Source: Hydrogenoanaerobacterium saccharovorans (GTDB taxonomy: Bacteria > Bacillota > Clostridia > Oscillospirales > Ruminococcaceae). From it: DNA of 64,000 bases. Positions within the stretch are counted from its first letter, which is position 1. Every line of letters begins with the position of its first letter. This document shows positions 6,789 through 23,958 of this stretch, piece after piece. The notes under the pieces were generated by a model. The model made no database searches. It worked only from the letters and a program-made list of their open reading frames with translations, and was not told the DNA's origin. The translations under genes were made by a program, and so were the position numbers. The DNA is taken from contig NZ_JACSNR010000005.1 in NCBI RefSeq assembly GCF_016901815.1, forward strand, positions 62,001-126,000. Direction: 5' to 3'.

Positions 6789-6829
6789 AAGAAGAACTAA
6801 GCGATATCTGACAGGAAAGGACAAGCCCT

Positions 6830-7699: not shown

Positions 7700-8145
7700 A
7701 ACTCTATGAACTGGTCAACCACTACCACATCGGCACGGAACTGACCTGCGCCGAGGCGATGTTTATGGCCTGCAACGAATATTACCATCTGAATTTGTCC
7801 GAGGAGACCCGGAAAATGTTCTCCGTCATGGGCCTTGGGATGCAGACCGAGCACTCCTGCTGCGGCGCCTTCACCGTGGCGGTGGGAATCATTGGGCTGA
7901 TGACCGCCAAAGAGGGCCAAACGGATGTGAGCAACATGGAAGGCTATCAGATGATTTCCGAATTGACCGACTTTATGCTGGGCTTCTATGGAACGCTCCA
8001 CTGTGTCGAGCTGCAACAGCTGGAAATCATGGGTTATGAAAACCCTTGCCACGCCATTGTGGAGGCGTTGGCCAAGAAGTTGGAGGAGTTGCTGGCGGGC
8101 CGCAGGATTTTCCAGCCGATAAATGGGGGACAGCTCAGTTCCTGA
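7687..8145 (+). CDS. C_GCAxxG_C_C-like (redox-type) family protein
   Basis: A protein of 152 residues whose start (ATG 7687, GGAG upstream) overlaps the last codons of the NADAR gene. 'LTCAEAMFMACNEYY' near the N-terminus, 'MGLGMQTEHSCCGAFTVAVG' in the middle and 'LHCVELQQLEIMGYENPCH' near the C-terminus reproduce the cysteine spacing of the C_GCAxxG_C_C family, thought to be redox or metal-binding proteins. Here the canonical GCA is replaced by CCGAF. Why such a protein sits in an immunity array is unclear; coupling to NADAR suggests joint function. Confidence 0.65.
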   Translation: MATMKLYELVNHYHIGTELTCAEAMFMACNEYYHLNLSEETRKMFSVMGLGMQTEHSCCGAFTVAVGIIGLMTAKEGQTDVSNMEGYQMISELTDFMLGFYGTLHCVELQQLEIMGYENPCHAIVEALAKKLEELLAGRRIFQPINGGQLSS

Positions 8146-8168
8146 TATGCTGGAAAGGGAGGGAAGAC

Positions 8169-8612
8169 ATGAAAGACTTTTCCCAATACGGAAACAGACC
8201 GGACGACCAGTGGGAAATGCTGCCCTGGATACCCGATCCGCGTCCGCCCTTCAAAATCTGGGTGAAGCCGGAGCAGATCGCGCCATTCTTTCTCATTCCT
8301 CACCACCCCTATGCCATCTCCCTTCTTCTGAAAATCAGCGACGGATTCCGGACGGAGGAATTCCGCAGGCTGGGACTGAGCGGCAGTTGCGGAGACTGGG
8401 AACGGCTTGTTCGGGGCGTGATCCGGGAGTTTGAGGAAAATAACAGCGGTGTGGATCTGTTTCACTTCGACTCCGACGAAGATGTGTTCTGCGTGTACTC
8501 CCAATACATCGATGATTTGATGCTACTGTCCAAAATGATCCGGGCGGCCTGTGACAATGAAAAAACGATGGGGACTTATCTGGGTATAGGTGAGGTGGAA
8601 CATGAGAAATAA
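8169..8612 (+). CDS. Imm51-like immunity protein
   Basis: A protein of 147 residues from ATG 8169 behind GGGAGGGAAG. The segment 'LSGSCGDWERLVRGVIREFE' followed by 'FHFDSDEDVFCVYSQYIDDL' fits the Imm51 pattern (a 'nGydWe.l...ll' element followed by 'fDpEagmF.ays'). The call is from memory of the family and moderate at best. The last codons overlap the next gene by 11 nt. Confidence 0.5.
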   Translation: MKDFSQYGNRPDDQWEMLPWIPDPRPPFKIWVKPEQIAPFFLIPHHPYAISLLLKISDGFRTEEFRRLGLSGSCGDWERLVRGVIREFEENNSGVDLFHFDSDEDVFCVYSQYIDDLMLLSKMIRAACDNEKTMGTYLGIGEVEHEK

Positions 8613-8931
8613 GGAGCAGGAGATTGCATGGCGAAAAGTAATAGAAGCCTGCATGGAGGATGTGAAATACCACTTCGCTGACATAGAGCAGGCCGTTGAG
8701 TTTGGCTGGTACATCCAGCCAGACAATTACTTTGTGTCCTATATCTTTGCCACCGACGCACAATTAGAAACAGCACAGCAGAGCGGCCTTACGGAACAGA
8801 TCAATTCCTATCACAGAGAGCAGCTGATAAAGCGTGATTACCCCATTGAGGGAATCAAGGACTGCACCTTTGCCTCACAGGAGGAATGTGACCGGGAATT
8901 TGGCGGGAATTGGTATTACTATTTCAAATGA
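8602..8931 (+). CDS. Hypothetical protein of the immunity array
   Basis: A protein of 109 residues. ATG 8602, with GAGGTGG seven bases upstream, overlaps the previous gene. It is aromatic-rich at the C-terminus ('EFGGNWYYYFK') and soluble. Family not recognised. Confidence 0.6.
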   Translation: MRNKEQEIAWRKVIEACMEDVKYHFADIEQAVEFGWYIQPDNYFVSYIFATDAQLETAQQSGLTEQINSYHREQLIKRDYPIEGIKDCTFASQEECDREFGGNWYYYFK

Positions 8932-8949
8932 TACGATGAGGGCATCGAT

Positions 8950-9246
8950 ATGATTGAGTACATCAAACTTTTTTGGGAGGACGCACCGGAGGGAGAACCA
9001 CTGGTCATCCTCTATGAAGTGGATACCGAAGATGAGCGGCTGGCCCTCCGCTCCATTGACATTTTTTCGGATGGCCGCACCCGCAACATCCCTGACCTTT
9101 ACGACGGCGCCATCGAGATCACGCCGATCCCCACCGTGGAGGAATTGAACGCCCATGTCTGGGGTGAGGAGTTCCACGCCTGTATCATAGAGCAGGCGGA
9201 ATTTGAGGCCATCTGGGAAAGCCGATTTTATAGCGGAGCGTTTTGA
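8950..9246 (+). CDS. DUF6881-type immunity-like protein
   Basis: A protein of 98 residues beginning 'MIEYIKLFWEDAPEGEPLVI' and ending 'EQAEFEAIWESRF'. The order 'YIK.xW' at the start, an 'evdtedERlALRSIDIFSDG' centre, a 'PIPTVEELN' element and the 'EFEaIW' end fits DUF6881, a small family common in immunity clusters. RBS GAGGG lies 9 nt before ATG 8950. Function is unknown. Confidence 0.7.
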   Translation: MIEYIKLFWEDAPEGEPLVILYEVDTEDERLALRSIDIFSDGRTRNIPDLYDGAIEITPIPTVEELNAHVWGEEFHACIIEQAEFEAIWESRFYSGAF

Positions 9247-9262
9247 AAAGCGAGGAATGACA

Positions 9263-9949
9263 ATGGTTGAAATCAATCGTGTCTGGCTCAATGTGGATAC
9301 AGACACCAACAAAATCACACTATTCAGCCGTCCCCGTGTATCCATCCATGTGGATGAGTACATTTGGAGTTTGATCGAAGAACATATCGTGAAGCCCCAT
9401 AAGCTCATGCGCAGCGAAAAGCATAAGTATCTGCTGAAAATTGCCTTAGGCCGATTTGATCCGGTGCGGCACCGATATTATCCGCTTTCCCCGTACAACG
9501 GACAGCTTCGGGAAGGCGTCAAGCCGGACAGCGCAAACGGATGGTATCCCCGTGAGGACTTTGCGGACGCTGCGGAACGCGCCACCTGGTTCTCCCCCGA
9601 TAAAATCTGGACAAACTGCGGCAACAAGGTTCTGGATGTGAATGTTGATGCCGCCAACGTGAGCGAGAGCATCACCCCCAGAGAATACGCAGACTTGCTG
9701 TTCGATGGGATTGGGGCAGCACTGGTGTTTAACTTCAAAAGGCTCAAACGCGAGGAGTTTGATGAGCTGAAACCCAAGATTGACTGGAGCATGGTGGAAA
9801 GTTTTCCCTTTCCCGCACCCTTTGAGGAGCAACAGTACATTGGAGACGAGGGCAAAATTCATGTGTATTTCTGGGATGGCCGGCAGGAAACGAACCTTGT
9901 GGGCCCCTATTCCGTACGGGAGTTGTATCTGGAGTATTTCAAAGAATAG
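9263..9949 (+). CDS. Hypothetical protein of the immunity array
   Basis: A protein of 228 residues. Two in-frame ATG codons (9257, 9263) follow CGAGGA; 9263 gives normal spacing. There is no signal peptide or membrane helix. It is rich in aromatic residues and ends in 'VYFWDGRQETNLVGPYSVRE' plus a short helix. The family is not recognised. Confidence 0.6.
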   Translation: MVEINRVWLNVDTDTNKITLFSRPRVSIHVDEYIWSLIEEHIVKPHKLMRSEKHKYLLKIALGRFDPVRHRYYPLSPYNGQLREGVKPDSANGWYPREDFADAAERATWFSPDKIWTNCGNKVLDVNVDAANVSESITPREYADLLFDGIGAALVFNFKRLKREEFDELKPKIDWSMVESFPFPAPFEEQQYIGDEGKIHVYFWDGRQETNLVGPYSVRELYLEYFKE

Positions 9950-9962
9950 CGAGGGAGATTTT

Positions 9963-10241
9963 GTGGGACAAGACTGGCTCAAGATGGATTTTGGCACGGG
10001 AAAGGTCACCTTTCTGGATGCCATGCGAAAGGAAGATATGCTGCAAGTGGAATATCCCAACAGACTCCTGCTGGACATGGGATGGTATCAGGACAGGTAC
10101 ATCATTTCTATCATTCGAGATTTTGATTGGATGCATCCAATCAAGCAATATAAAACCACAGAGGGAAATCAGCTTTCCACATTGTTGGCAGAGGCTGTTC
10201 ACCTTGTAGAAAACAAATCACAGTCTGGCAAAGCGAATTGA
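9963..10241 (+). CDS. Hypothetical small protein with GTG start
   Basis: A 92-residue protein. GTG 9963 is the likely start since GAGGGAG lies at 9951-9957; there is no in-frame ATG before residue 9. It contains 'TGKVTFLDAMRKEDMLQVEY' and 'MHPIKQYKTTEGNQLSTLL'. It is visibly more AT-rich than the genes on either side. Family unknown. Confidence 0.55.
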   Translation: MGQDWLKMDFGTGKVTFLDAMRKEDMLQVEYPNRLLLDMGWYQDRYIISIIRDFDWMHPIKQYKTTEGNQLSTLLAEAVHLVENKSQSGKAN

Positions 10242-10254
10242 AAAAGGATTTGCT

Positions 10255-11229
10255 ATGAACGAAAAACTATTTCGCACCCAATTCAATCAAATAGAAATCA
10301 CCGAGAAACAGGCGCTGATGGAAAGTCTTGCCGCTCGTTATGCTATGACTTTTCTCGGCCTGCAGCCCTTTGACCGCTGGGGTCAGAACTGTACCACCGG
10401 CATATTTAAGAAAGATGGCCGGGAGTTTGTCTTCGTTCCCGGCGATACCGTCACCCTGGGCTGGGAACGGTTCGCCATAGGGCTCAGTCAGGACAGCCGA
10501 GAGGAACTGGATTATCTGTTCCAGGAATGGGAGATGGAACAGGACCCGGAGGAGATGATCCGGGAAAGTATGGCTCCTGTTCGGCAGGCAGCTATTGGCC
10601 CTATGCTGGTGGGCCGGGAACTGGAGGAACTCTGCTGGGAGCCGGTCACAATGGCTGATCCCAGGCTGATCGCCCACCCTGACTGGCTGAAGCAGTTCCG
10701 GGAGTTTGCCTGGAGCGACCTTGACAGCTTTACTATGCACCAGTCGACCCGCATTGAGCGGACGGAAAAGGGCTTTCAGATCTGGATCTATAAGCGCACA
10801 GACTACGATGCGCTTCTTGCCGGGCTGGAAAAGCAGGGTCTTTCACTGCCTACGGCAGACGAGTGGTCCTATCTGTGCGGCGGCGGGTGCCGCACCCTGT
10901 TCCCTTGGGGAGATGGGATGGACTACTCCATGCATCTGCACTGGTTCGAGGATATGGAGGAGGACGGGGACAGGCCCTACGACATGGAGGAGCCCAACTT
11001 CTTCGGCCTGTCCATCGCCTATGACCCCTATATGCGGGAGGTCGTGAAGTCCGAGCAGTTTACCACCTGCGGCGGGGATGGCGGACGCAGCATCTGCGGT
11101 GGACTGGGGATCTTCCTCGGTTTCCTGCCCTGTTCGCCGCACTGCAAGCCGGAAGTGCAGGAGGACAAGGAGCTGAACGGCGACTATGACTTCTACCGGC
11201 CTATTATCCGGGTGGATATGGACGGTTAG
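10255..11229 (+). CDS. Protein with a SUMF1/FGE-like C-terminal domain
   Basis: A protein of 324 residues. Residues 1-175 form an unrecognised N-terminal domain. From about 180 the sequence resembles formylglycine-generating-enzyme-like (SUMF1/EgtB/PvdO) domains: 'LSLPTADEWSYLCGGGCRTLFPWGD', 'EEPNFFGLSIAYDPYMREVV', 'CGGDGGRSICGG' and 'DFYRPIIRVDMDG' in the right order (only the ends of each are quoted as key residues). The usual 'dM.GNV.EW' and 'RGGSW' motifs are changed and the C-terminal GFR is YRP, so catalysis is doubtful. It may be a binding scaffold used for immunity. Confidence 0.6.
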   Translation: MNEKLFRTQFNQIEITEKQALMESLAARYAMTFLGLQPFDRWGQNCTTGIFKKDGREFVFVPGDTVTLGWERFAIGLSQDSREELDYLFQEWEMEQDPEEMIRESMAPVRQAAIGPMLVGRELEELCWEPVTMADPRLIAHPDWLKQFREFAWSDLDSFTMHQSTRIERTEKGFQIWIYKRTDYDALLAGLEKQGLSLPTADEWSYLCGGGCRTLFPWGDGMDYSMHLHWFEDMEEDGDRPYDMEEPNFFGLSIAYDPYMREVVKSEQFTTCGGDGGRSICGGLGIFLGFLPCSPHCKPEVQEDKELNGDYDFYRPIIRVDMDG

Positions 11230-11308
11230 AAGAAAAAACTGGACACCCGGCTGTGGGGCCGGTGTGGAACCTACTACTTACAGAAAAAAGACTGAAGGAG
11301 GCGTCAAC

Positions 11309-12157
11309 ATGGATGTCGTGAAACTTCCCAAGAAAGTCCGCATGGTCTGCTATGAGATTATGGACGGCAAAGAAGAAGCCTTGGGCACGCTGGAATCCTT
11401 TGCCGATAAATATCCCCATCAGGTAGCGGCGGTCAAGGCCGAGGTCGCATATTTCAACCTGGACTATGAAAAGGCGCTGGCTTTGGATCTGGCCATCCTG
11501 CCCTGGCTGGAGGAGTGGTATTACAGCAATGTGAGCGATGAACACATGATCGCCATGACGGTGGCCGCCATCCAGCTCCACCGGGAGGAGAAGCTGATTG
11601 AGGCGCTGACGAAAGAACAGGCGCGCATCCGGGCGGAGAACGGCCTCCCCCAGCGGGATCGTTTCTGTGACATCCTGATGGATTATCTCAAGCGGGGTGT
11701 TATGCCCTTTGCGGACAACGATAAGAACTTCCCCTACCATGAACCGGAGAAACCGCAGACAAAGGAACAGCTCTGGGCAAAGCTGGTGGAACAGTATAAG
11801 AAGCTCTCGCCAGACGATCCCGATGCCAGGCGGAAGCTCTATAACCACTGCTGTATGTTCGGAACCGCCAGGGATGCCGTAGATCTCTTTGAGGAGATTC
11901 AAGGCGTGCCCATGGCTGACTCCTCCTATCGGGACGCAATCGCCCGCTATCTCTACTTGGGTGAACGGGAGAAGGCGCTCCAGACAGCGGAGCGGTTGGC
12001 AGCATCGCGGCTGTGGGCGGTTGCCGGACCGACGCAGGTGCGTCCCATGTCCTTTTTTGAGGACCCGAATCTGCGGGAGTTTTTGCTGGAGCCGGAATCC
12101 CTCCGGCGCATCCGGGAAGCTGCCTTCATTGATGACGGGAGTTTGATCCGAAAGTAA
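11309..12157 (+). CDS. Alpha-helical (TPR-like) protein of unknown function
   Basis: A protein of 282 residues from ATG 11309 after AAGGAGG. Repeated helix pairs with Ala/Leu spacing ('EVAYFNLDYEKALALDLAIL', 'YRDAIARYLYLGEREKALQT') suggest TPR-like repeats. There are no membrane or signal segments. It lies just upstream of another gene containing TPR blocks. I do not recognise the family and propose only a scaffold or immunity role. Confidence 0.6.
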   Translation: MDVVKLPKKVRMVCYEIMDGKEEALGTLESFADKYPHQVAAVKAEVAYFNLDYEKALALDLAILPWLEEWYYSNVSDEHMIAMTVAAIQLHREEKLIEALTKEQARIRAENGLPQRDRFCDILMDYLKRGVMPFADNDKNFPYHEPEKPQTKEQLWAKLVEQYKKLSPDDPDARRKLYNHCCMFGTARDAVDLFEEIQGVPMADSSYRDAIARYLYLGEREKALQTAERLAASRLWAVAGPTQVRPMSFFEDPNLREFLLEPESLRRIREAAFIDDGSLIRK

Positions 12158-12182
12158 ATTGCTTGGGAATGGAGGATCTGCT

Positions 12183-12533
12183 ATGAGCAAGGAGCTGGAA
12201 CTGTATAAAGCATTCATTGACGGCCTTGTGGAGCGGAAAGACAGCATGACAGCCCTGTGGGTCAAGGGTGATGGTTTCCCCAAGACAGAGGACAACAAGG
12301 CGAAAAATGATCTTCTCGCAACACTGACACCAGAGCAGAAAGGTGTGCTGGCCGAGATGCTTCAGGAAGAACATATTGCGGGTATCTATACTACCCTTGC
12401 TTATATCAATAAAATGATGGACTTGGATGGTTTGGAGCTTCATCAGGACGGTGAATCCTATCCCAACGACCATTTTGAGAGTTTGCATTATGACTTCATC
12501 AGCCGTTGTAACGGAGATGAGTGGCCGGAATAA
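12183..12533 (+). CDS. DUF6547-like protein
   Basis: A protein of 116 residues from ATG 12183 with GGAGG upstream. Strings 'LYKAFIDGLVERKDSMTALW', 'LLATLTPEQKGVLAEMLQEE' and the end 'HYDFISRCNGDEWPE' match what I recall of DUF6547. It is helical and acidic. Function unknown. Confidence 0.6.
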   Translation: MSKELELYKAFIDGLVERKDSMTALWVKGDGFPKTEDNKAKNDLLATLTPEQKGVLAEMLQEEHIAGIYTTLAYINKMMDLDGLELHQDGESYPNDHFESLHYDFISRCNGDEWPE

Positions 12534-12548
12534 AAGGAGGCGTGACAG

Positions 12549-15500
12549 ATGTATATCAAAAAATACTGGGGCAACTTTATCGGAGGTTCCGATGACAGCC
12601 TGAACCTTGTGGCGTTTCTGGAAGACCAGAAGAAAGAGGAAATTCCTCTCAGCGAGATTTTTGCCAAGATTGGGCTGGACAAGCAGAACTGGGACTTCCG
12701 CCAGACTGTGGAGTATCTGGAGTTCACCCACTCCAATGGCGTGGAGATGGACTTCCATTTCGCCATTGATGTGGTCACCGACCTGGCCGCCATCCTGCTG
12801 GAGTGCAGCGTCAGCGGCAGTGTGAACCTCCACGATCTGGACGAGTACAACACCCCCTCCCGCCGCATCCGCATCACCGCCACGCCAGAGGAGCACGACG
12901 CCATGAACAAGGCCCTCGCGGATTTTGCCCAGAACCCGATGGAATATGACCTCAGTGAGATGATGGACGACGAGGAAATCCACGAAATGGCTCGGGATGT
13001 GGAGGCGCTGCGGAAGGAGCTGTACGAGGCCGCTGGCCGCAACCGGGACTACCATGTGAAAGCGGAGGATGTGAAACATCTCCTTCCTGGCTGGGAGGGA
13101 GCAGATGGCTGTATCGCCACCAACCGTATCACGGTGGAGGGCTGCAAGATCGGCTACTGCTACCGGGAAAAGCCGGACGGCGACTGGGACAGTGGCTGGC
13201 GCTTCACCGCCGGTGATGAGAGTGAGGCGTATATGGACGACCCCAACAATGCCGGGATTTATAAGCTGAACACAATCTGCAACGACGATCCCGACATCAT
13301 TGTGCTGCTGCATACGCCCGCCCCTTGCGCCTTTGAGCGGGATGAGAACGGCGTGTTCCAGCAGATCAAAGACTGGAAACCGGAACAGGATGAGGAGGAC
13401 CAGGATATGGACATTTTGCAGCAGTGCCAGAAGTGGCATGAGAACAACGAGCATCAGAAGATCATTGAAACACTGGAGGGCATTGAGGAGCGCACTCCGG
13501 AAATGGACAGCCAGCTTGCAAGGGCGTACAACAACGAGGCAGATCACAGAACGCCGGAAGGCAGAGCTATGCTCAAAAAGGCCATCGCTCTCTTGAAACC
13601 TCATGAGGAATACTTTGAGGGAGACTACTACTGGAACTTTCGCATGGGCTATTCCTATTACTATCTGGATCAGGAGGGCAGGGCTCTTCGTTACTTTGAA
13701 AGGGCATTGGAGGCCCGCCCCGACGACGAGGACACCATGCAGCTGATCGACGGGTGCAAGAAGGGCATTTCTCTGCCTCAGTTCTCGGAGTGCTTCCGGG
13801 AGCGGACGGAATCTACATGGAAGGACTTTGCTCAGCAGGAAGCCCAGCTTCGCCGGATGATGGATGAGGACAAGGACCACACCCGGGGCCAGGAGCTGGT
13901 GGACCGGGTGGAAGGGATTCTGAACCAGGCGTTTGACGAAATCTCTTTCGAGATGGGCGTGGGTGGCGAGAAGTATGAGCTGATCCTCACCCCGGAGGGG
14001 GATAAGGTCAAGCTGTTTGAGCTGATTTACTTCCAGAAGCACGCCCCCAAGGAGGTGCTGGAGCACTGGAACATCCTGGTGGGCCGTCAGCCCATCCGAA
14101 ACATCGGCCTTCGCACCGACGATGGCTGGGACATCTCTGGGGATGATGTGCAGATCTGGCTGGAGGAGGAGGGCGAAAACAGTTTCACCATCTCCGCCTA
14201 CTGCGAAAAGCTGCTGCCCATGCTTCGGGAGGCGGAAGGCCGAGCCTGGTGGATGCTCACCACCCTTACCGACCAGGTGTTGGGCGAGATTTCCCACATG
14301 AGATACATAGACAGCTTTGATGTACTGGAGGCCCCCAGGGCGGAGCCGTCCATCCCCATGTCCCAGCTGCCGGACAAGCTGAAGGAAAAGGGAGTAAACC
14401 TCTCCACCGACCCGGAAGCCTATCTGAACAGCTACCTTGGCTACAAAATGGAACCCAACAAGGACCCGGGAGCCGACTGGCGATTGGATGTAATTGCCGG
14501 CTCCACCAACTGCGTGCCGCTCATCAACGGCTATCTGGATGCCGACAATGACTTCATGGACGCTCTCCATGCCGACGGCGCGGTGGCGGGCTTCTTCTGC
14601 TATCCTTTGGATACCCTGCGGGAGGAGGAAGGAACGGATAAGATCTTCGACTTCCGGGATAAGCTGGAAGAAGTGTTCACCACCGGCGACGGGCCGGAGG
14701 TACTCACCCTCACCGGCGGAGCCACCGGCCTTTTCTGCGGCTATGTGGACTTCATCGCCTGGGACATTCACTCGGCACTCCAGATGGCCAAGGAATTCTT
14801 CGAGGGCAGTGACATCCCCTGGGCCAGCTTCCACACCTTCCGCCGGGAGGCAGGCACTGTGAACCTGAAAACACCGCCCGAGGAGGAACCGGACGATGAG
14901 GATCAGGTCCCCGAGCTGGACGAAACGCTGACGGATATGGACTATATCCCTTATACACAGCAGAATGAGGAAGAATTCTTCGCACAGATCGAGCAGTGGA
15001 ACGACGAGGATGAGTACACCCGCTGCATTCAGGCGCTCAACGCCATCCCGGAGGACTGGCGAAATTACCGCATTGCCTACGCCATGGCACGGGCGCTGGA
15101 GAATTACGCTATTTTGGGAGATCATCAGGAGGGAACCCCCAACTACAAGGGGGATAAGGCTCTCCGACGGGCCATCCAGGTGCTGGAATCTGTCCGGGAG
15201 GAAGGCCAGGACAAGGCCCAGTGGAATATGCGGATGGCTTATGGATACCAGTATCTCTACCATCAGGAGGAAAAGGCCATCCCCTACGCCCAGCGGTGGG
15301 CGGAGCTGGACCCGGAGGACGAGAACGCCCCGGCGGTGATTCAGGAGTGTCAGAAGGAGATAGAAAAACGGGCCGAGGCAGAGAACGAAGACGAGAGTGA
15401 CCACACAGGTGTCTTCACCGGCTTTGTGCTGCTGTCCAAGGCAGAATGGGATAAAGGGCAGTTCATTCGGGACATGAAGGAAAAATGGGACATTCCAGTG

Positions 15501-18143
15501 GAGGAATACGACGCCAGCGAGGAGAAAGACGACGACGCACTGGTGTTTGAAGTGGGCGATATGGTTGGTGCGGTCAGCCTGAACAACTATCCCATTCCCG
15601 GCGGCGAGGCCGAGGCCAATGCGGAAAACAACTATATGTGGGAGGATGCAGTCAAGGTTGCCAAGGAACACAGCGCCCACATCATGGTTGCGGTGCTGGG
15701 CAAAGAGGAGGACCTGCTGGAAAAGGGTAAGCTGTTCGCCAAGGTGGTGGCTGCCTGCTGCCGCCAGAAATATGCCACCGGCATCTATACCAGCGGCGTG
15801 GTGTTTGAGCCCCAATTCTATGAGGGTTTTGCCGACATGATGCAGGAAGACGAGCTGCCCATCTTCAACTGGGTCTGGTTCGGCCTCTGGCAGGATGAGA
15901 ATGGCATGAATGGCTACACCTACGGCCTGGATGTGTTCGGCAAAGACGAGATGGAGGTGCTGGGCACCGATGCCAAGCCGAGCGATCTGCGGGACTTTTT
16001 GGCCAGCCTTGTGTCCTATGTGCTGGAGAATGATGTGGAACTGCACGATGGGGAGACCATCGGTTTTGATGCAGATGATAAGCACACCATCACCCGCAGC
16101 CCGGGCGTCGGCCTGCCGGAGGAGCAGATGACTCTGAAAATCTCCTGGGCGTCATCGGACGGTGACCCTGACGATGGTGACGATGACCCGGACGGCGAAG
16201 CTCCCGAGGATGAAGAAACCGGTGTTCCCGAGGTCTACACCGAGGATGAGATGGAGGCCGTCGAGGCTCACATTCAGCAGTATTTCGGCAAGTTTGAGAA
16301 TGTGTTCCACGAGCTGTCTTCGCCGGACATCCATGTGGACATCTGCGTGGTGCCGCCCTCCGAGGAGCGTGACTACTACACCCTGGTCACCATGGGCATG
16401 GGTGCCCACCGGATGAATGTGCCGGAGGAACTGGCCGAATACAAGCTGGAGCGGGCGGAGCTTGCCATCGCGTTGCCGAGGAACTGGAAACTGAAGCGTG
16501 AGGACCTGAAGAATGAGCGATGGTACTGGCCCATTCGTCTGCTGAAAGCCCTGGCCCGCCTTCCCATTGCCAGCGATACCTGGCTGGGCTTCGGCCATAC
16601 CATGGACAATGAGGAGGACTTCGCAAAAGGCACAAAGCTGTGCGCCGCCATTCTGACCGGTCCCCAGGACACCGAAGATGGCAGCGAGGTCTGCATCTTG
16701 CCCGGCGGCGAGGAGGTCAACTTCTATCAGGTGATCCCTCTCTACCGGGATGAATTGGAATACAAGCTGGCCCATGACGCGGACGCCCTGCTGGACAAAA
16801 TGAACGGCATCAGCTTTGTGGTGGAGCCTGATCGTCAGGATGCTATCACTCGTGGCACCCTTTCCAATGATGATTTTGACGGTGAAATGGACGATGCCTC
16901 CTATCATATCGAGAGCATTGAGGAGAAGGGTCTGCCCATTGACCCCATCAATGCCTACAACCATATGGCCATCTACTTGCGTTGGTGCATGGAGCATGAT
17001 TTGATGGGCGAGGAATTTCTGAAAGAATACGGCGAAGTGGCCAAACAGGTCAAAGCCGACCCTGCCAGTGTGGACCTGCGGGCATTCATCCAGAATGAGT
17101 TGGACGGCTGCTTGTTCTCTGTGCTATTCGATCAGAAAGGCCGTGCTTTTGCAGGCTATTACTATGGAGAGGGCGACAGCCCCTACTATCCTGCCGATGT
17201 TGATGACAACGCCCTCCGCTTCTTCGGCCCGGAGCGGTATCACTCCAATGAGTTCCAAGATGAAGCCTACCTGTTCATCCCCTTTGACGAGGACTACTAC
17301 CAGGCCATGGCAAAGGTGATCGAGGAACGCTTCACCAACTGGCAGGGACAGGACTTCGACGAGGACACGCTGGAGCCCTCTGAACTGGCTGAGGCGTTGA
17401 TGGAGTATCTGGACTGTGAATGCACCTATTTCCCCTCCATGAAGGACGATGATCCCATTATGTCGGCATACAGCTATGCCAAACGGGAAAGTGTCAAAGA
17501 AGGCTTTGTGCCGGTACTCATCAAGGCGGATGACGAAACGCTGCTTGAGTGTCTGGTGATGAACGCCGACCCAAAGAATGATGCGGACATTTACGAATTT
17601 GACCTCAAAACTGTAACGGAGTACCGGAAGAAGATGCTCTCCACCTCCGTCAAAGACGGAAAGGCGGTTTTGGAGGAAATGACCGGCCAGCGCAAGGAAG
17701 AAGCCGAGGATGACGATATGGACTGGGAGGAGGAAATCCTGGGCGAGATGGAAGGCGGCTATGAGAATAACCGTATCTCCTGCTACTGGGATTCCGGCAC
17801 CGATATGACCCACCCTCTCATTCTGGCGAAAATTCCGGTCAAGAACCCCTGGGAGATCTTTGCCTACCTGCCCTTCGGAAACTGGAACGACTGCCCCAAC
17901 ACGCCGGAGCTGATGGCTGCGGCCAAATACTGGTTCGAGCAGTACGGCGCGGTGCCTGCCGCCATGAGCCACGATGAGCTGGAGTTCCTGCTCCCGGCTC
18001 CCGTCCCCGAGGAGAAGGCCATGGATGCAGCGGTGGAACTGTATGGCTTCTGCCCGGATCTGGATCAGAATGAGGATGGGAGCATTGGCTCCTTGGCAGA
18101 TGCCCTGTGGCAGTCCACCGTCTGGTACTTCTGGTGGGATTGA
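12549..18143 (+). CDS. Giant poly-immunity protein (DUF2185/Imm33, TPR, DUF4261, SUFU, DUF7832-like, DUF4253)
   Basis: A protein of 1864 residues from ATG 12549 after AAAAGGAGG. Approximate modules: 1-125 unnamed N-terminal domain; 185-272 DUF2185/Imm33 ('GYCYREKPDGDWDSGWRFTA'); 288-398 TPR block; 415-595 and 605-770 two unnamed domains; 800-935 second TPR block; 950-1200 DUF4261 ('HIMVAVLGKEEDL', 'YATGIYTSGVVF', 'GYTYGLDVFGKDEMEVLG'); 1228-1425 Suppressor of fused ('HVDICVVPPSEE', 'LVTMGMGAHRMNVPEE', 'TWLGFGHTMDNEE'); 1455-1600 DUF7832-like ('NAYNHMAIYLRWCMEHDLM'); 1731-1864 DUF4253 ending 'TVWYFWWD'. Acidic linkers separate modules. Most named modules are known immunity families, so it would neutralise several unrelated toxins at once. 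It is cytosolic, with no signal peptide. Confidence 0.85.
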   Translation: MYIKKYWGNFIGGSDDSLNLVAFLEDQKKEEIPLSEIFAKIGLDKQNWDFRQTVEYLEFTHSNGVEMDFHFAIDVVTDLAAILLECSVSGSVNLHDLDEYNTPSRRIRITATPEEHDAMNKALADFAQNPMEYDLSEMMDDEEIHEMARDVEALRKELYEAAGRNRDYHVKAEDVKHLLPGWEGADGCIATNRITVEGCKIGYCYREKPDGDWDSGWRFTAGDESEAYMDDPNNAGIYKLNTICNDDPDIIVLLHTPAPCAFERDENGVFQQIKDWKPEQDEEDQDMDILQQCQKWHENNEHQKIIETLEGIEERTPEMDSQLARAYNNEADHRTPEGRAMLKKAIALLKPHEEYFEGDYYWNFRMGYSYYYLDQEGRALRYFERALEARPDDEDTMQLIDGCKKGISLPQFSECFRERTESTWKDFAQQEAQLRRMMDEDKDHTRGQELVDRVEGILNQAFDEISFEMGVGGEKYELILTPEGDKVKLFELIYFQKHAPKEVLEHWNILVGRQPIRNIGLRTDDGWDISGDDVQIWLEEEGENSFTISAYCEKLLPMLREAEGRAWWMLTTLTDQVLGEISHMRYIDSFDVLEAPRAEPSIPMSQLPDKLKEKGVNLSTDPEAYLNSYLGYKMEPNKDPGADWRLDVIAGSTNCVPLINGYLDADNDFMDALHADGAVAGFFCYPLDTLREEEGTDKIFDFRDKLEEVFTTGDGPEVLTLTGGATGLFCGYVDFIAWDIHSALQMAKEFFEGSDIPWASFHTFRREAGTVNLKTPPEEEPDDEDQVPELDETLTDMDYIPYTQQNEEEFFAQIEQWNDEDEYTRCIQALNAIPEDWRNYRIAYAMARALENYAILGDHQEGTPNYKGDKALRRAIQVLESVREEGQDKAQWNMRMAYGYQYLYHQEEKAIPYAQRWAELDPEDENAPAVIQECQKEIEKRAEAENEDESDHTGVFTGFVLLSKAEWDKGQFIRDMKEKWDIPVEEYDASEEKDDDALVFEVGDMVGAVSLNNYPIPGGEAEANAENNYMWEDAVKVAKEHSAHIMVAVLGKEEDLLEKGKLFAKVVAACCRQKYATGIYTSGVVFEPQFYEGFADMMQEDELPIFNWVWFGLWQDENGMNGYTYGLDVFGKDEMEVLGTDAKPSDLRDFLASLVSYVLENDVELHDGETIGFDADDKHTITRSPGVGLPEEQMTLKISWASSDGDPDDGDDDPDGEAPEDEETGVPEVYTEDEMEAVEAHIQQYFGKFENVFHELSSPDIHVDICVVPPSEERDYYTLVTMGMGAHRMNVPEELAEYKLERAELAIALPRNWKLKREDLKNERWYWPIRLLKALARLPIASDTWLGFGHTMDNEEDFAKGTKLCAAILTGPQDTEDGSEVCILPGGEEVNFYQVIPLYRDELEYKLAHDADALLDKMNGISFVVEPDRQDAITRGTLSNDDFDGEMDDASYHIESIEEKGLPIDPINAYNHMAIYLRWCMEHDLMGEEFLKEYGEVAKQVKADPASVDLRAFIQNELDGCLFSVLFDQKGRAFAGYYYGEGDSPYYPADVDDNALRFFGPERYHSNEFQDEAYLFIPFDEDYYQAMAKVIEERFTNWQGQDFDEDTLEPSELAEALMEYLDCECTYFPSMKDDDPIMSAYSYAKRESVKEGFVPVLIKADDETLLECLVMNADPKNDADIYEFDLKTVTEYRKKMLSTSVKDGKAVLEEMTGQRKEEAEDDDMDWEEEILGEMEGGYENNRISCYWDSGTDMTHPLILAKIPVKNPWEIFAYLPFGNWNDCPNTPELMAAAKYWFEQYGAVPAAMSHDELEFLLPAPVPEEKAMDAAVELYGFCPDLDQNEDGSIGSLADALWQSTVWYFWWD

Positions 18144-18158
18144 TGGGAGATTTTGGCC

Positions 18159-19022
18159 ATGAACGAATACCTGAAGCAATATATTGAACTCCAAAAGCAG
18201 TTTCGAGAGACAAAAGGAAATCCAGACAGTGTCCGCGCTCTCTATACCTTCAAGGAGAAACTGGAGCAGTCGGAAGACAAACAGGCCAAGGAGGTGCTGG
18301 TGGATGTGTATGATCTGCTGGACTTCAAGAAGGATGCCTACGAACTGCTCTGCCAAATCGGAAATCATTCCGATAAAAAGACACTCAAGCGGCTGGGCAC
18401 GCTGAAGGAATATGCGGAAAACTGGGGCAATCATTATGCTCTCCCCAAGCCCAAAACGCCGGAGGAAAAGCAGAAAGAGAAGGAGCGGCAGGCTCAGCTG
18501 GGCTTGCCCACCTTCCGGTATCACCCCAATCCGCTGGAAACCGGCGCTTTTGAGGAGTCCGCGGATGGCGTTGCCTGCGACTGCTGCGGCAAGACGACCC
18601 ATATTTTCTATACAGGCCCCTTTTACGCTGTGGAGGATATTGAGTATCTGTGCCCGGAGTGTATCTCCAGCGGCGAGGCGGCCCGGAAATATGATGGCAG
18701 CTTCCAGGACGATTGCTCCGTGGATGATGGCGTGGAGGACCCGGCCCGACTGGACGAGCTCATCCACCGAACTCCTGGCTACTGTGGCTGGCAGCAGGAA
18801 TACTGGCGCACCCACTGCGGCGACTACTGCGCCTATCTGGGCCATGTGGGTGCCAGAGAACTGCGGGCGCTGGGTGTGCTGGAGGATGTGCTGGACGATC
18901 CCATGTGGGATGACGAACAGAAGGAAATGATTCAGGAATCCGTCAATGGCGGGCATCTGCAATGCTATCTGTTCCAGTGCCTCCACTGCGGAAAACACCT
19001 GGTCTGGATGGATTTTGATTGA
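18159..19022 (+). CDS. CbrC family protein (colicin-tolerance type)
   Basis: A protein of 287 residues. ATG 18159 follows GGGAGA. Residues 1-110 are a helical charged N-terminal extension; from about 113 the CbrC/UPF0167 domain begins: 'LPTFRYHPNPLETGAFE', 'CDCCGKTTHIFYTGPFY', 'LCPECISSGEAARKYDGSF', 'RTPGYCGWQQEYWRTHCGDY' and a terminal 'YLFQCLHCGKHLVWMDFD'. Paired CxxC motifs suggest zinc binding. E. coli CbrC gives tolerance to colicin E2, so the family fits a toxin-immunity array. The helical extension is absent from classical members. Confidence 0.85.
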   Translation: MNEYLKQYIELQKQFRETKGNPDSVRALYTFKEKLEQSEDKQAKEVLVDVYDLLDFKKDAYELLCQIGNHSDKKTLKRLGTLKEYAENWGNHYALPKPKTPEEKQKEKERQAQLGLPTFRYHPNPLETGAFEESADGVACDCCGKTTHIFYTGPFYAVEDIEYLCPECISSGEAARKYDGSFQDDCSVDDGVEDPARLDELIHRTPGYCGWQQEYWRTHCGDYCAYLGHVGARELRALGVLEDVLDDPMWDDEQKEMIQESVNGGHLQCYLFQCLHCGKHLVWMDFD

Positions 19023-19041
19023 TAAGGAGGTGCCTGCACCA

Positions 19042-20151
19042 ATGGAAAAAACCTTCCTCAACCCCGCCACAAATAAGCAGTGGCGGATTGAAATTGATGG
19101 ACATACCATCCGAACCTGCCTCCATGGCGGGAAGGTTAAAGAGATCCTGTGCGACTCCGCCTTCCAGGTCAAGAGTAAGGCGGCCAGCGCTATGATGGGC
19201 CAGATGCGGAAAGGATTTGTCTATCAGAATCCGGATGCCGCTGTTGGACAGGCGCGGTGCCATCGGTTTGTCGGCAAGGACAGCAACGGCTTTATGCCCT
19301 TGGCTGCCGCCCTCACACGGGACGACTTCTTCCTGACGAGAGTGGTCGGAGATTTTGAGGACGAGACCCTCTATCACTTCGATGGCAGCGGGGAGATCCT
19401 CGAAACAGTTTCCCTGGGCGCAAAGAGAATGACCTATGAGCAGGTCCTCTGCCCCAATGACACCCTTCTTCTGAACAACAGCTATCTTCTCCAGCAGTTC
19501 TCACTCCGCACCCATGAAATCACGCCCTTTGCCAACAAGAAAAACAGCATGAAGGCCATGCTGGATGCCAGCGGCGACTTGGCCCTCTGGTACACAGGCG
19601 AGGAGATTGTCGTCTTTGACTTTGGCAGCAACACGGAGGTGTGGCGGGAAACGGTAAAATGCAAGAAGTCAAAAGACCCGAATTTTGCCTATTACTGCTT
19701 TGGGATGCTCTCTCCCCGGCAGAGCAAAGCGGCCTACCGCGTCACCGAGGGTGAGTATGTGCTGGTCGATCTGAAGTCCGCCCAAAAAGTAGTGATTCCC
19801 AATGAGGGCTGGCATCCCTTCTTCTCTCCAGATGACCAGTGTTTCTCAGTGGGCGGCAGGTTCTATCTGACCCAGACCGGAGAGGAGATAGCCAATCCTT
19901 TCCCATTTTCTGTCCGGCAGGGACTGAGTTTTTCAGACACCTGCGCGGTGAAGACAAGGGGCAGCCTGATGGCTGTTCAGCAGGATCGTGGCAGCTCCCC
20001 CATAGAAGTATGGGATATCGGCAACGGCCAGCTGCTGGCCACCATTGATGATCCCTTTGTGGTGCGCCAGGTGAATTTTGCCTTTACCAAGAGTGGACTG
20101 GTCCTGCACACCGATTACGGGGCTATGAGCATCTATTCCTGCAACCTCTGA
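19042..20151 (+). CDS. WGR-like domain plus beta-propeller protein
   Basis: A protein of 369 residues from ATG 19042 after AAGGAGG. Residues 1-60 resemble a WGR domain ('NKQWRIEIDGHTIRTCLHGG' then a helix ending 'MRKGFVYQNP'), a nucleic-acid-binding module. The rest is a run of beta blades ('ASGDLALWYTGEEIVVFDFG', 'VLVDLKSAQKVVIPNEGWHP', 'PIEVWDIGNGQLLATIDD') typical of WD40-like propellers. No signal peptide. In this context it may be an immunity protein or sensor; nothing more can be said from sequence. Confidence 0.65.
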   Translation: MEKTFLNPATNKQWRIEIDGHTIRTCLHGGKVKEILCDSAFQVKSKAASAMMGQMRKGFVYQNPDAAVGQARCHRFVGKDSNGFMPLAAALTRDDFFLTRVVGDFEDETLYHFDGSGEILETVSLGAKRMTYEQVLCPNDTLLLNNSYLLQQFSLRTHEITPFANKKNSMKAMLDASGDLALWYTGEEIVVFDFGSNTEVWRETVKCKKSKDPNFAYYCFGMLSPRQSKAAYRVTEGEYVLVDLKSAQKVVIPNEGWHPFFSPDDQCFSVGGRFYLTQTGEEIANPFPFSVRQGLSFSDTCAVKTRGSLMAVQQDRGSSPIEVWDIGNGQLLATIDDPFVVRQVNFAFTKSGLVLHTDYGAMSIYSCNL

Positions 20152-20167
20152 AACGGAGGCGGAGGAA

Positions 20168-20497
20168 ATGGCGTATGCTGATTTGAAGAATAAACTTGAT
20201 GAGTATAACTGGGATGACGGGTTCGAAGTCCCAAGAACAATCCTCGCTGACCCGGACTGCGATTTGGCATTGGCGTTGGAGATTTTCTATTTGGCCGGCG
20301 GGTACGAATACTTGGAAAAATCAGCGAAAAGAACTAAGCTGCAAAAGTGGAATCCATTTATTACCGTCCTATATGAAGACATCTTAGACAACAGATTTCC
20401 TAAGACAGATGCATCGTTTGAAATTCCATTGAGCAAGGTGCAGAAGTATAAACTGCGGAAAAAGGGAGCTGCGGAAATCTTTCTTACGGATTTATAG
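20168..20497 (+). CDS. DUF4274 domain protein
   Basis: A protein of 109 residues. 'DEYNWDDGFEVPRTILADPD' followed by 'CDLALALEIFYLAGGYEYL' and 'FEIPLSKVQKYKLRKKG' is the DUF4274 signature. ATG 20168 has GGAGGCGGAGG in front. More AT-rich than flanking genes. DUF4274 genes are common in immunity clusters; function is unknown. Confidence 0.8.
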   Translation: MAYADLKNKLDEYNWDDGFEVPRTILADPDCDLALALEIFYLAGGYEYLEKSAKRTKLQKWNPFITVLYEDILDNRFPKTDASFEIPLSKVQKYKLRKKGAAEIFLTDL

Positions 20498-20526
20498 TTT
20501 TTCATTTATCAGGGAGAATCGCACCT

Positions 20527-21276
20527 ATGAACAAAGAATCATTGACTGAAAAACTCCTGGACTTGGTCGAGGGGCGGGAAACTCCCGAAACCTGGAGGAG
20601 CTGGTGGGACGAACATGAGACGGAGTTGGAAGCCCTGCTGAGTCGGGGCGAGTTTCTGAAGCTAAAGCCCTGCCGGCATGGCTTCCAGTGGGTCCCGGTG
20701 TTTGGCAGCCAAAAGGGAGCCATCGCCATTCTGGAAAAGAGCGGCTTAGCATTTGAAGCCAGCAATCTCTACCAGGAGCGGTATCTGGCCGAACTGGACG
20801 CTTTCTGCAAGGAGCAGGAGCGAGTGCAGCGGGAAAAGCAAAAGGAATTCAAGGCCAGCCACCCGGAGCTGTTTGGCCGATACCCCAAGTTCTCCAAGGC
20901 GCTGGCAAAGGTGCTGGACACCTCTGATGAGATCAAGCCTGCCGCCACGGAGGAGCAGATTGGGAATCAAGAAAGCGTGCTGGACTTCACGCTCCCGTCC
21001 CAGGTGAGGGAGTTTTTCCTGCTGACCGCAGGCATCCAGGCATCCACAGGCGTGATCCTTTCCCTTTCCGGGATGTTTGATCTGACCATCCATGGAGAGA
21101 GGTATTGTGTGCTGGGCGAGTTCTGGAAAGAAGCGGACGGCGACCAGCTCCTGCTCCGCCCCGGAGAGGAAACCATCTGGTACTACGCCCATGAGCAGGA
21201 CAAGGTAAAGCGCCTCTGCAATGGTATGACAGAACTGCTGGAGAAGAAATTGGCGAGGTATCTCAATGAGCAATAA
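20527..21276 (+). CDS. SUKH-1 (SMI1/KNR4) protein with an N-terminal WW-containing module
   Basis: A protein of 249 residues. Residues 1-75 include 'TWRSWWDEHETELEALLSRG' and a following 'FLKLKPCRHGFQWVPVFGSQ', closely resembling the N-terminal module of the NADAR protein at 6830. Residues about 110-245 look like SMI1/KNR4: 'QESVLDFTLPSQVREFFLLT', 'FDLTIHGERYCVLGEFWKEA', 'GDQLLLRPGEETIWYYAHEQ' and a final helix. SUKH-1 proteins bind and neutralise many toxin types. RBS GGGAG is 10 nt before ATG 20527. Confidence 0.75.
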   Translation: MNKESLTEKLLDLVEGRETPETWRSWWDEHETELEALLSRGEFLKLKPCRHGFQWVPVFGSQKGAIAILEKSGLAFEASNLYQERYLAELDAFCKEQERVQREKQKEFKASHPELFGRYPKFSKALAKVLDTSDEIKPAATEEQIGNQESVLDFTLPSQVREFFLLTAGIQASTGVILSLSGMFDLTIHGERYCVLGEFWKEADGDQLLLRPGEETIWYYAHEQDKVKRLCNGMTELLEKKLARYLNEQ

Positions 21277-21330
21277 AAATAACGCGGCGGTTGAGAGCTG
21301 AACTGTAAATGGATGAAGGAAAAATGAACA

Positions 21331-21681
21331 ATGACATTAGAAGAAATGTTCTGTGATCTGTACGATAAATATGGTAAGGATTTTAACTGGTATCTGCTTC
21401 CCCTCACACAGGCGGACGGAGCATTTGTCGTTGAACTAAACAAAGAAATAGGACAAGGCCACTTCTTATCCGGCAAAAAAATCCGGGCGGTTGCGAAGTG
21501 TGATTCCAATGATGATGTGCTATATGTTGTCAGAAGCGGAATAGGAAGGGACATCTACTATATGTTCCATTTGACTTACTCAGCACATAATGCGGACGGA
21601 TTTCCCCGGTATGTGGAGTTTACAGATCTATTTGCAGTAAAAGAATTTATAGAACGATCATATATCGAGGATTGTATGTAA
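21331..21681 (+). CDS. Hypothetical protein, AT-rich
   Basis: A protein of 116 residues from ATG 21331 with AAGGA about ten bases upstream. It has an alpha-beta pattern with 'IYYMFHLTYSAHNADGFPRY' in the second half. Lower GC than its neighbours points to a separate origin. Family unknown, immunity role inferred only from position. Confidence 0.6.
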   Translation: MTLEEMFCDLYDKYGKDFNWYLLPLTQADGAFVVELNKEIGQGHFLSGKKIRAVAKCDSNDDVLYVVRSGIGRDIYYMFHLTYSAHNADGFPRYVEFTDLFAVKEFIERSYIEDCM

Positions 21682-21748
21682 TCTTTAAATTTTAATCAAT
21701 TGGGAAGTTTACCTTACCCGCAGCCACAGCCGAAAGGAGGCGGTCGCT

Positions 21749-22261
21749 ATGCCAACTTGGAGCGGAATCCGAAACAAGCTGGAAAATGATTACCTGTGCC
21801 CGGCGCTCCGGGGGCACATCCAGTATTTTGTCACCCGTTACAGCAAAAGCGCTGACCATGAGGGCCGGGCAGCCATTCGCATGGACGGCGTGGAAGTGCT
21901 GCGGAGCAACCATTACACCTATTTTGAGAATGTGTGGACGAAATTTCATCATTTGAGGTCCACAACGCTGAAGGATCACGACTCCGCAAAAGGGGCCATC
22001 AACCAGGCTCATGCCTTTGCGCTGGAGCAGGGCACCTTTGACCAAAAGGTGTTCTATGAGGCGTTTGGGATCTTTGACAACCAGAGCATTGAGAAAAGCC
22101 TTGTCAGCGAGAATCCTCTTGTCCGCATCTTTGCCCTCCTGGACCGCAGGCTGGGAAAGCGCCGTCTGCTGGCCTTGGAGGAATCCATGGAACAGGAGCT
22201 GGACTGGGTGCGGGCCTTCTATGTGATCCGGATGCAGGTAGAAGGGCTGATGGAGGATTAA
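21749..22261 (+). CDS. SF0329-type family protein
   Basis: A protein of 170 residues from ATG 21749 after AAAGGAGG. The start 'MPTWSGIRNKLENDYLCPAL' plus 'GHIQYFVTRYSKSADHEGRA' and 'IRMDGVEVLRSN' matches the SF0329 family (a conserved protein beginning 'm..Wskl...L...l.p.L'), often seen in immunity loci. Second half is helical ('ALLDRRLGKRRLLALEESME'). Function unknown. Confidence 0.65.
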   Translation: MPTWSGIRNKLENDYLCPALRGHIQYFVTRYSKSADHEGRAAIRMDGVEVLRSNHYTYFENVWTKFHHLRSTTLKDHDSAKGAINQAHAFALEQGTFDQKVFYEAFGIFDNQSIEKSLVSENPLVRIFALLDRRLGKRRLLALEESMEQELDWVRAFYVIRMQVEGLMED

Positions 22262-22274
22262 GGAGGGATTTATC

Positions 22275-22853
22275 TTGTCAAAAGCTCTCACTGAATGCGC
22301 AATCTTAAGTATTCAATTGGAAGAAACAGCATGGACAATCGGTCAACTTTGCTGCCGTTTTGAGTTGGAAGGGCAAAAATACAAACAATATACAATGGCA
22401 TTCTTTGATGTGCTGTTTTCAAGTGAGGAAGAATTGGTAGAGAATCTTGACAGCTTGGATTTAACAAAGCCAATCATCATTACAACACTGAATAGACACC
22501 CGCAAAGAGGATATGGATTACATCTTATAGGGAATAAAACTATTTCATACACAAATGTTCCAAACTATAAAAGTGATATATCCCCAACGCTTGGTTTATA
22601 TAAAAACAAATCAACGGACTTCGACCATTTGCTAAATGCGTGGTTTGGTTTTTTGCCATGGGACGGATTTTGTAGAGAAGATTATGTTGATGCATTCCTT
22701 ACTCCAGGGACAAAAAAGAAAAGTGATATCAGATTTATGAAAGATTTTACAGTGGAAGAATTGAAGGAGATTATGCCCGCAGGAAGTATTGCTTTAATTC
22801 AACACTTACAAAAAGATAATGTAAAAAACAGTGTTCCACCTAATGTGGGGTGA
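22275..22853 (+). CDS. AT-rich hypothetical protein with TTG start, Imm26-like at best
   Basis: A 192-residue protein. TTG 22275 is the start: AAGGAGGG lies 7 nt before it and no other in-frame start is near. The gene is strikingly AT-rich compared with neighbours and uses different codons (AAA, ATT, TTA), the clearest recent transfer in the array. The central part 'YTMAFFDVLFSSEEELVENL' with 'PIIITTLNRHPQRGYGLHLI' recalls Imm26-type proteins, but I would not insist. Confidence 0.6.
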   Translation: MSKALTECAILSIQLEETAWTIGQLCCRFELEGQKYKQYTMAFFDVLFSSEEELVENLDSLDLTKPIIITTLNRHPQRGYGLHLIGNKTISYTNVPNYKSDISPTLGLYKNKSTDFDHLLNAWFGFLPWDGFCREDYVDAFLTPGTKKKSDIRFMKDFTVEELKEIMPAGSIALIQHLQKDNVKNSVPPNVG

Positions 22854-22873
22854 AATAGAAAAGAGGAATCTCT

Positions 22874-23233
22874 ATGTCACAGATCGCATCCTTTTATCTT
22901 CTCAAAGACGGCCGGCGGCAGGAACTGTCCAACGGCGACTGCTCCGGCGCGGTCTATATGGCCATCTGGGACTGGTGTGAGAGCGAGCTGGATCTGGATG
23001 TCCGTTTTCCTGCTCCCCAGACGGAGGACACCCTGGACTGCGCTTTGCTGGAGGGAGCGCTGGCGTCTAATGTGCTGGCAGCTCTGCGGGAGCAGGACCT
23101 CCCGGAACTGGCCGCTGAAATTGCCCCAGACTGGGATCTGCCCACCGAGGCGGTGCAAAGCGGGCTTGAAACGCTGCGCTCCCATCTGGAACTGGTGCAG
23201 GGCGACGCTGCCCTGCTGTATGAAATGACTTGA
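22874..23233 (+). CDS. Hypothetical protein of the immunity array
   Basis: A protein of 119 residues from ATG 22874 after AGAGGAA. Beta-rich N-terminus ('IASFYLLKDGRRQELSNGDC'), helical C-terminus ('LETLRSHLELVQGDAALLYE'), acidic and soluble. Returns abruptly to the high GC of the array after the AT-rich gene upstream. Family unknown. Confidence 0.6.
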   Translation: MSQIASFYLLKDGRRQELSNGDCSGAVYMAIWDWCESELDLDVRFPAPQTEDTLDCALLEGALASNVLAALREQDLPELAAEIAPDWDLPTEAVQSGLETLRSHLELVQGDAALLYEMT

Positions 23234-23284
23234 CGGGACTATGCCCATGATAAGGATATAGGTTAAGAAATGGAGAGGAATACC

Positions 23285-23934: not shown

Positions 23935-23958
23935 CCAAGCAAAAAAGGAGGCATCACT

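What the first reader, a model, noticed from the sequence alone, without database searches (positions are those of the whole stretch)
12549..18143. 1864-residue poly-immunity protein combining at least five immunity-type domains
One uninterrupted frame joins DUF2185/Imm33, DUF4261, SUFU, a DUF7832-like module and DUF4253, with two TPR blocks and three domains I cannot name. Poly-immunity fusions are known, but this size and the repeated TPR spacer plan are unusual. The unnamed parts (1-125, 415-595, 605-770) may be new immunity domains.
Basis: partly seen in the sequence, partly recalled or inferred. Interest (0 to 1): 0.85.

Follow-up and report, generated by a model that had tools for sequence, protein, structure and literature searches.

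The report
Shuffled multi-toxin immunity fusion protein
One gut-bacterial gene strings at least six, probably eight, different toxin-antidote modules into a single 1,864-residue protein; the same chain, with modules swapped, added or lost, is passed between many unrelated gut Clostridia, so it looks like a shared multi-toxin shield rather than protection from the cell's own toxins.

Summary
The frame is real: 12549-18143 is one 1,864-aa gene; a Gemmiger isolate has a colinear 89-90% identical 1,868-aa copy and 16 further loci share the ten-module order (two incomplete). Modules: Imm68, Imm33, TPR, A, B, TPR, DUF4261, SUFU, DUF7832, DUF4253. A+B (405-790) match no Pfam family and, despite a confident AlphaFold model, no solved or viral fold. 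Polyimmunity proteins with up to ten domains and TPRs were described in 2012, so this is a new member of a known kind; relatives reach about 2,230 aa. New here: (1) it lies in a roughly 34.5-kb array of immunity-type genes shared across gut Clostridia at identities above RpoB, in a genome without LXG, WXG100 or RHS matches; (2) modules are gained, lost and swapped as units (synonymous divergence uneven in 14 of 16 comparisons); (3) the Imm33-TPR1 linker is a former ribosome-binding site and start codon, and a stop/sense pair is seen at that joint in relatives. Best reading: a horizontally spread orphan polyimmunity protein. Its toxins are unknown; immunity is inferred from families and context.

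The parts
12549..18143 (+). 1,864-aa polyimmunity gene
12549..13034 (+). Imm68 module (res 1-162)
   Evidence: Pfam PF15583 5e-43
13035..13388 (+). Imm33/DUF2185 module (res 163-280)
   Evidence: Pfam PF09951 5e-35
13389..13760 (+). TPR block 1 (res 281-404)
   Evidence: weak TPR hits; paralogous to TPR block 2; helical hairpins in the model
13393..13409 (+). Shine-Dalgarno AGGAGG (13393-13398), 8-nt spacer and internal ATG (13407-13409, Met287): former start of a separate gene, now read as acidic linker
   Evidence: 43 of 44 fused copies keep it versus 4.2% of other internal Met; free-standing relatives start here with the same kind of RBS
13761..14360 (+). Module A (res 405-604), no known family
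   Evidence: no Pfam/PDB match; confident fold; no fold match
14361..14918 (+). Module B (res 605-790), no known family, practically always behind A
14946..15383 (+). TPR block 2 (res 800-945)
15384..16157 (+). Full DUF4261-type module (res 946-1203; Pfam covers 1123-1198)
   Evidence: Pfam PF14080 2e-21; free-standing homologues
16215..16868 (+). SUFU module (res 1223-1440)
   Evidence: Pfam PF05076 2e-47
16869..17258 (+). DUF7832 module (res 1441-1570)
   Evidence: Pfam PF25191 9e-33
17271..18140 (+). DUF4253-type module (res 1575-1864; Pfam covers 1759-1864)
   Evidence: Pfam PF14062 8e-29
188..25464 (+). Window part of the same-strand immunity-gene island: SUKH-3 (1160), DUF4241 (3993), NADAR (6830), Imm51 (8046), DUF6547 (12159), UPF0167/CbrC-like (18153), DUF4274 (20168), SUKH-1 (20527), SF0329 (21749) and unnamed genes
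   Evidence: shared with other genomes
25624..25641 (-). Right-hand copy of an 18-bp inverted pair; the left copy lies 34.5 kb away at contig C34:53110, directly after tRNA-Gln
   Evidence: only two copies in the genome; same pair and end of identity in Merdimmobilis

Best explanation
An orphan, horizontally spread polyimmunity protein. Each module is a separate toxin-binding (or toxin-countering) domain, probably held on flexible acidic linkers and two TPR blocks, so that one polypeptide can neutralise several unrelated antibacterial toxins delivered by neighbours. It was built from neighbouring genes of a mobile immunity array by loss of stop codons: where a downstream gene's ribosome-binding site (GAGGAGGA..ATG) is in frame, losing the upstream stop turns the site into a Glu/Asp-rich linker and leaves the old start as an internal Met. 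Modules are then gained, lost and exchanged between bacteria by recombination. Shown: gene, module order, module gain/loss/swap, purifying selection, transfer across genera and families, RBS-derived linker at Met287, absence of LXG/WXG100/RHS matches in the host genome. Inferred: that each module neutralises a toxin, the identity of the toxins, TPRs as spacers or docking parts, and whether Met287 still makes a second, shorter protein.
For: Six known immunity-type families in one frame; immunity-type neighbours including SUKH, Imm51, CbrC-like and DUF6547 genes; no LXG, WXG100 or RHS match in the host genome; protein identity in other genera exceeds RpoB identity in every whole-protein comparison (e.g. 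Oscillibacter 90 v 73, Lachnoclostridium 89 v 69, Hungatella 83 v 70) and for A+B in Holdemania 82 v 64; dN/dS 0.11-0.17; synonymous divergence differs between modules within a pair of genomes (14 of 16 pairs p<0.02; Gemmiger v window 0/44 four-fold sites in DUF7832, 12/25 in TPR1); clean module presence/absence; RBS-to-linker pattern and a stop/sense pair at the joint, L109 TAA v L123 CAA; precedent that orphan SUKH immunity proteins of gut arrays bind and neutralise effectors (PMC12247911).
Against: No toxin is identified for any module; for most modules immunity is a family-level label from genome context (Zhang 2012); I found no functional test of DUF4261, DUF4253 or DUF7832; A and B have no known relatives. 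Absence of three toxin-related families does not exclude other toxins in the host. The stop/sense pair was seen at one joint and with a different upstream gene from the window's Imm33.
Confidence: 0.75

Rival explanations
1. Self-protection: the modules are cognate immunity domains for the host's own secreted toxins.
For: The families are normally found beside toxins (PMC3482391).
Against: No LXG, WXG100 or RHS match in the host genome; no toxin-family hit among the island genes scanned; Zhang 2012 also finds that polyimmunity operons usually lack toxin genes.
Confidence: 0.06
2. Not immunity: a large TPR scaffold of another cellular or anti-phage function, whose domains carry 'Imm' labels only by context.
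For: Most modules were never assayed; A/B are unknown; Foldseek of the TPR-A-B-TPR model returns only general TPR scaffolds.
Against: SUFU, Imm33, Imm68, and SUKH in sister copies, occur together with many small immunity-type genes in one array; the gain/loss/swap pattern and wide transfer fit an arms race better than a housekeeping scaffold.
Confidence: 0.14
3. Decaying accretion or assembly/binning artefact.
For: The genome is a 65-contig draft; some relatives are MAGs; some copies are visibly broken (e.g. L098, L111, L143).
Against: Intact copies in many cultured isolates and dN/dS 0.11-0.17 in whole-gene comparisons.
Confidence: 0.02

Closest known systems
Polyimmunity proteins (Zhang, Aravind et al. 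2012, PMC3482391), e.g. gi 160893617 of Clostridium sp. L2-50
   Same: Several immunity domains (SUFU, Imm33, Imm68, SUKH, Imm66/67/69) plus TPR in one Firmicute protein; encoded without toxins.
   Different: Here A/B have no Pfam, solved-structure or viral-fold match; module-level exchange and an RBS-derived linker are measured; the gene sits in a long immunity array, whereas the 2012 survey saw polyimmunity proteins mainly in small loci.
Acquired interbacterial defence systems (AID/rAID) of gut Bacteroidales (PMC12247911; PMC10470768)
   Same: Arrays of orphan immunity genes, horizontally spread, in gut bacteria.
   Different: rAID is recombinase-associated, holds single-domain genes and acts against T6SS; here no recombinase was recognised, genes are fused, and the hosts are Clostridia, not Bacteroidales.
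Polyimmunity loci (tandem immunity genes; PMC3482391)
   Same: Same-strand array of diverse immunity genes with single-gene gain and loss.
   Different: In the window's gene former neighbouring genes have become one protein.

Membership tests
Polyimmunity protein (Zhang 2012) | Two or more unrelated immunity domains in one polypeptide | tested here: met
   Imm68, Imm33, SUFU (named immunity families) plus DUF4261, DUF7832, DUF4253 by Pfam
Polyimmunity protein (Zhang 2012) | Encoded in an operon without toxin genes | tested here: met
   No toxin family among the neighbouring genes scanned
Polyimmunity protein (Zhang 2012) | Neutralises more than one toxin | not testable with these tools
   Needs expression and toxicity assays
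Polyimmunity protein (Zhang 2012) | Segments A/B equal Imm66, Imm67, Imm69 or SuFu-family 2 (not required for membership) | tested here: inconclusive
   No Pfam hit and no SUFU fold hit; the paper's alignments were not readable here
AID/rAID system | Orphan immunity array without cognate toxins in the same genome | tested here: inconclusive
   LXG, WXG100 and RHS absent; other toxin types not searched
AID/rAID system | Horizontally transferred | tested here: met
AID/rAID system | Associated recombinase (rAID) | tested here: not met
   None recognised among the island genes scanned by Pfam; several genes remain unnamed; not filed as rAID
AID/rAID system | Bacteroidales host | tested here: not met
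   Host's family includes Faecalibacterium, Gemmiger and Merdimmobilis

The most novel reading that the evidence does not exclude
A mobile immunity island of gut Clostridia that builds its own multi-antidote proteins: genes are spaced so that losing a stop codon fuses neighbours in frame and turns the ribosome-binding site into a linker, while the retained internal start still makes a second product; recombination then trades single modules, including a new immunity fold (A-B), between species.
Probability: 0.3. Interest if true: 0.75.

Novelty: new member of a known kind. Interest (0 to 1): 0.55.

Why it matters
I found no described counterpart of the Bacteroidales acquired-defence arrays for gut Clostridia in the papers searched. 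This locus offers one with a record of how it is built: the same protein in many genera with single modules present, absent or replaced. That makes two questions testable: what each unassigned module (A-B, DUF4261, DUF7832, DUF4253) neutralises, and whether ribosome-binding sites become inter-domain linkers in general.

Tried and rejected
A/B as SUFU- or SUKH-like: no Foldseek hit at E<=0.001 in PDB or BFVD, no hhalign link to the other modules. A split gene in Merdimmobilis (two overlapping frames): rejected, the stretch between reads N. A sharp right island border from blastn coverage alone: rejected as partly an artefact of 9-kb flanks; replaced by the colinear comparison with Merdimmobilis. 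The inverted 18-mer as a proven mobile-element end: weakened, since the left-end block also follows tRNA-Gln in Angelakisella without the island, a right-end-like motif lies near tRNA-Gln in another genome without it, and Gemmiger's colinear island lacks it. Weak PARP, TipAS and similar hits of A+B: below any threshold. Foldseek of the TPR-A-B-TPR model adds only generic TPR scaffolds.

Full report
CHECK. The frame 12549-18143 is a single uninterrupted 1,864-aa ORF. Pfam finds Imm68, Imm33, DUF4261, SUFU, DUF7832 and DUF4253 far above their cut-offs. NCBIfam names none of them; it matches the neighbour at 18153 to the colicin E2 tolerance protein CbrC, below its curated cut-off. Two TPR blocks (281-404, 800-945) are paralogues of each other; no other pair of modules is related by profile comparison.

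REAL GENE. Among 60 relatives a full-length copy (1,868 aa, 89-90%) lies in another genus. A scan of 84,980 species genomes with the A+B alignment gave 235 relatives; of the 80 loci kept, 17 (16 assemblies) hold the same ten-module order, one truncated by a contig end (L084) and one with a shortened Imm33 (L097): Faecalibacterium An122 (two copies), F. gallinarum, Flavonifractor, Pseudoflavonifractor, Oscillibacter, Angelakisella, Lachnoclostridium, Gemmiger, Anaerotignum and others. Whole-gene dN/dS is 0.11-0.17 where dS is not saturated, and low in each module. An assembly join or decay is excluded for practical purposes.

A AND B. Residues 405-790 match no Pfam family as single members and nothing convincing by sequence in the PDB (best E 0.09). 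AlphaFold2 with 20 sequences gives a confident model (pLDDT 89.7, pTM 0.88) that has no Foldseek match at E<=0.001 in PDB or BFVD. A and B travel together, nearly always behind TPR block 1, including free-standing genes of 486-505 aa. No AlphaFold DB of cellular proteins was available, so 'no fold match' is limited to solved and viral structures. They may be, in part, Zhang's Imm66/67/69 or SuFu-family 2; I could not test this. A joint model of TPR-A-B-TPR has pTM 0.47, so relative orientation is undefined.

MODULARITY. Sister copies differ by whole modules at fixed joints: SUKH added between TPR2 and DUF4261 (Pfam-checked in three copies; inferred from a same-size, alignable insert in others), DUF4259 added at the N terminus, SUFU absent (L120, L128, L129, L133), Imm33 absent (L146), Imm68+Imm33 absent, DUF4261+TPR2 absent. 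The largest intact relatives are about 2,220-2,232 aa. Joints fall in acidic linkers. Within one pair of genomes, synonymous divergence differs strongly between modules: window v Gemmiger DUF7832 0 of 44 four-fold sites, TPR1 12 of 25; window v Lachnoclostridium TPR1 0 of 34, DUF7832 17 of 30; 14 of 16 comparisons reject homogeneity at p<0.02 by permutation. The simplest cause is recombination exchanging modules. The comparisons all share the window sequence and are not independent.

HOW THE FUSION AROSE. Met287 in the fusion is the start codon in free-standing relatives. The codons before it (GAT GAG GAG GAC CAG GAT) contain AGGAGG eight bases upstream: 43 of 44 fused copies keep such a site against 4.2% of 2,441 other internal Met codons (copies are related, so these are not 44 independent cases). 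Different upstream genes are joined at this same Met: Imm33 (most), a gene like the window's 10255-11229 (L100), and a third gene (L123, L136). In L109 that third gene still ends in TAA before the site (GATTTAAAATAATCCGAGGAGGAACAAAGT-ATG), where L123 reads CAA (GATTTGGAACAATCCGATGAGGAACAAGAT-ATG). Direction of change is not proven by two sequences; loss of the stop is the likelier direction because free-standing genes use the site as an RBS.

ISLAND. The own contig and the first Merdimmobilis copy are colinear, at mostly 90-96% DNA identity with some stretches lower or absent, from tRNA-Gln to window 25647. The 18-mer GTGGGAACACTTTAGATC occurs only twice in the host genome, inverted, at these two ends; the same holds in Merdimmobilis with one substitution, plus a third left-type copy after a second tRNA cluster. 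Because left-end blocks or right-end-like motifs also occur without the island elsewhere and Gemmiger lacks them, I treat this as a tRNA-adjacent hot spot with a suggestive but unexplained inverted pair, not as a proven transposon. Island genes seen in other genera are often 90-98% identical.

TRANSFER. Identity of the protein v RpoB: Merdimmobilis about 92 v 84, Angelakisella 88 v 81, Gemmiger 90 v 76, F. gallinarum 85 v 74, Flavonifractor 87 v 74, Oscillibacter 90 v 73, Lachnoclostridium 89 v 69, Hungatella 83 v 70, Lachnospiraceae GAM79 82 v 69, Anaerotignum 76 v 68; A+B only: Holdemania 82 v 64, Atopobium 66 v 62. Immunity proteins are expected to evolve faster than RpoB (general knowledge), so higher identity points to transfer.

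ORPHAN. The host genome has no match to LXG, WXG100 or RHS repeats, all of which ring in control genomes. Other toxin types were not searched.

MECHANISM. Best explanation and rivals are given in their sections. Steps shown: gene, modules, exchange, selection, transfer, RBS-derived linker. Steps inferred: toxin neutralisation, toxin identity, role of TPRs, use of Met287. PMC12247911 shows that orphan SUKH proteins of gut arrays bind and neutralise effectors with nanomolar affinity; that is an analogy, not evidence on this protein.

NOVELTY. The kind is known (polyimmunity proteins, 2012). What I did not find described in the papers searched is the module-wise exchange measured here, the RBS-to-linker origin of the joint, and the A-B pair; the paper library covers open-licence papers only.

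Noticed in passing
window 25624-25641 and L013 9111-9128: Exact 18-bp inverted pair, unique in the genome, flanking a 34.5-kb island; left copy directly after tRNA-Gln. The same pair (one substitution) flanks the Merdimmobilis island. No recombinase recognised.
   Followed up: partly
L182 18567-18948 and L164 1771-2152 (Merdimmobilis): The tRNA Gly-Arg-His-Gln cluster together with the island's left end is present twice, about 2.7 kb apart.
   Followed up: partly
L179 about 19140 (Angelakisella), L175 1501: Left-end block after tRNA-Gln without island, and a right-end-like motif about 200 bp after tRNA-Gln in another genome: possible scars of a lost element.
   Followed up: partly
window 6830-7699: NADAR-domain gene inside the immunity array; could be an enzymatic antidote to ADP-ribosylation.
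   Followed up: no
L013 12759-13601 and 17360-18199: Two paralogous DUF7021-DUF2262 genes inside the same island, mostly left of the window.
   Followed up: no
L009 12894-17351 and 7955-9073: Second polyimmunity locus in the same genome: 1,485-aa gene (TPR-A-B-...-SUFU-DUF7832-DUF4253) with the DUF4261 module in a separate gene.
   Followed up: partly
window 17271-18140 (DUF4253 module): DUF4253 is reported as a family with both knotted (3_1) and unknotted predicted members (PMC11184937); topology of this copy not examined.
   Followed up: no
L141, L151: Polyimmunity copies in archaeal MAGs (Methanomassiliicoccaceae, Methanocorpusculum); may be mis-binned contigs.
   Followed up: no
L034 6575-9242, L035 5217-7705: Runs of N in both Merdimmobilis copies, starting soon after the Met287-equivalent and followed by a repeat of the same joint: these copies may hold an extra module set.
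   Followed up: no
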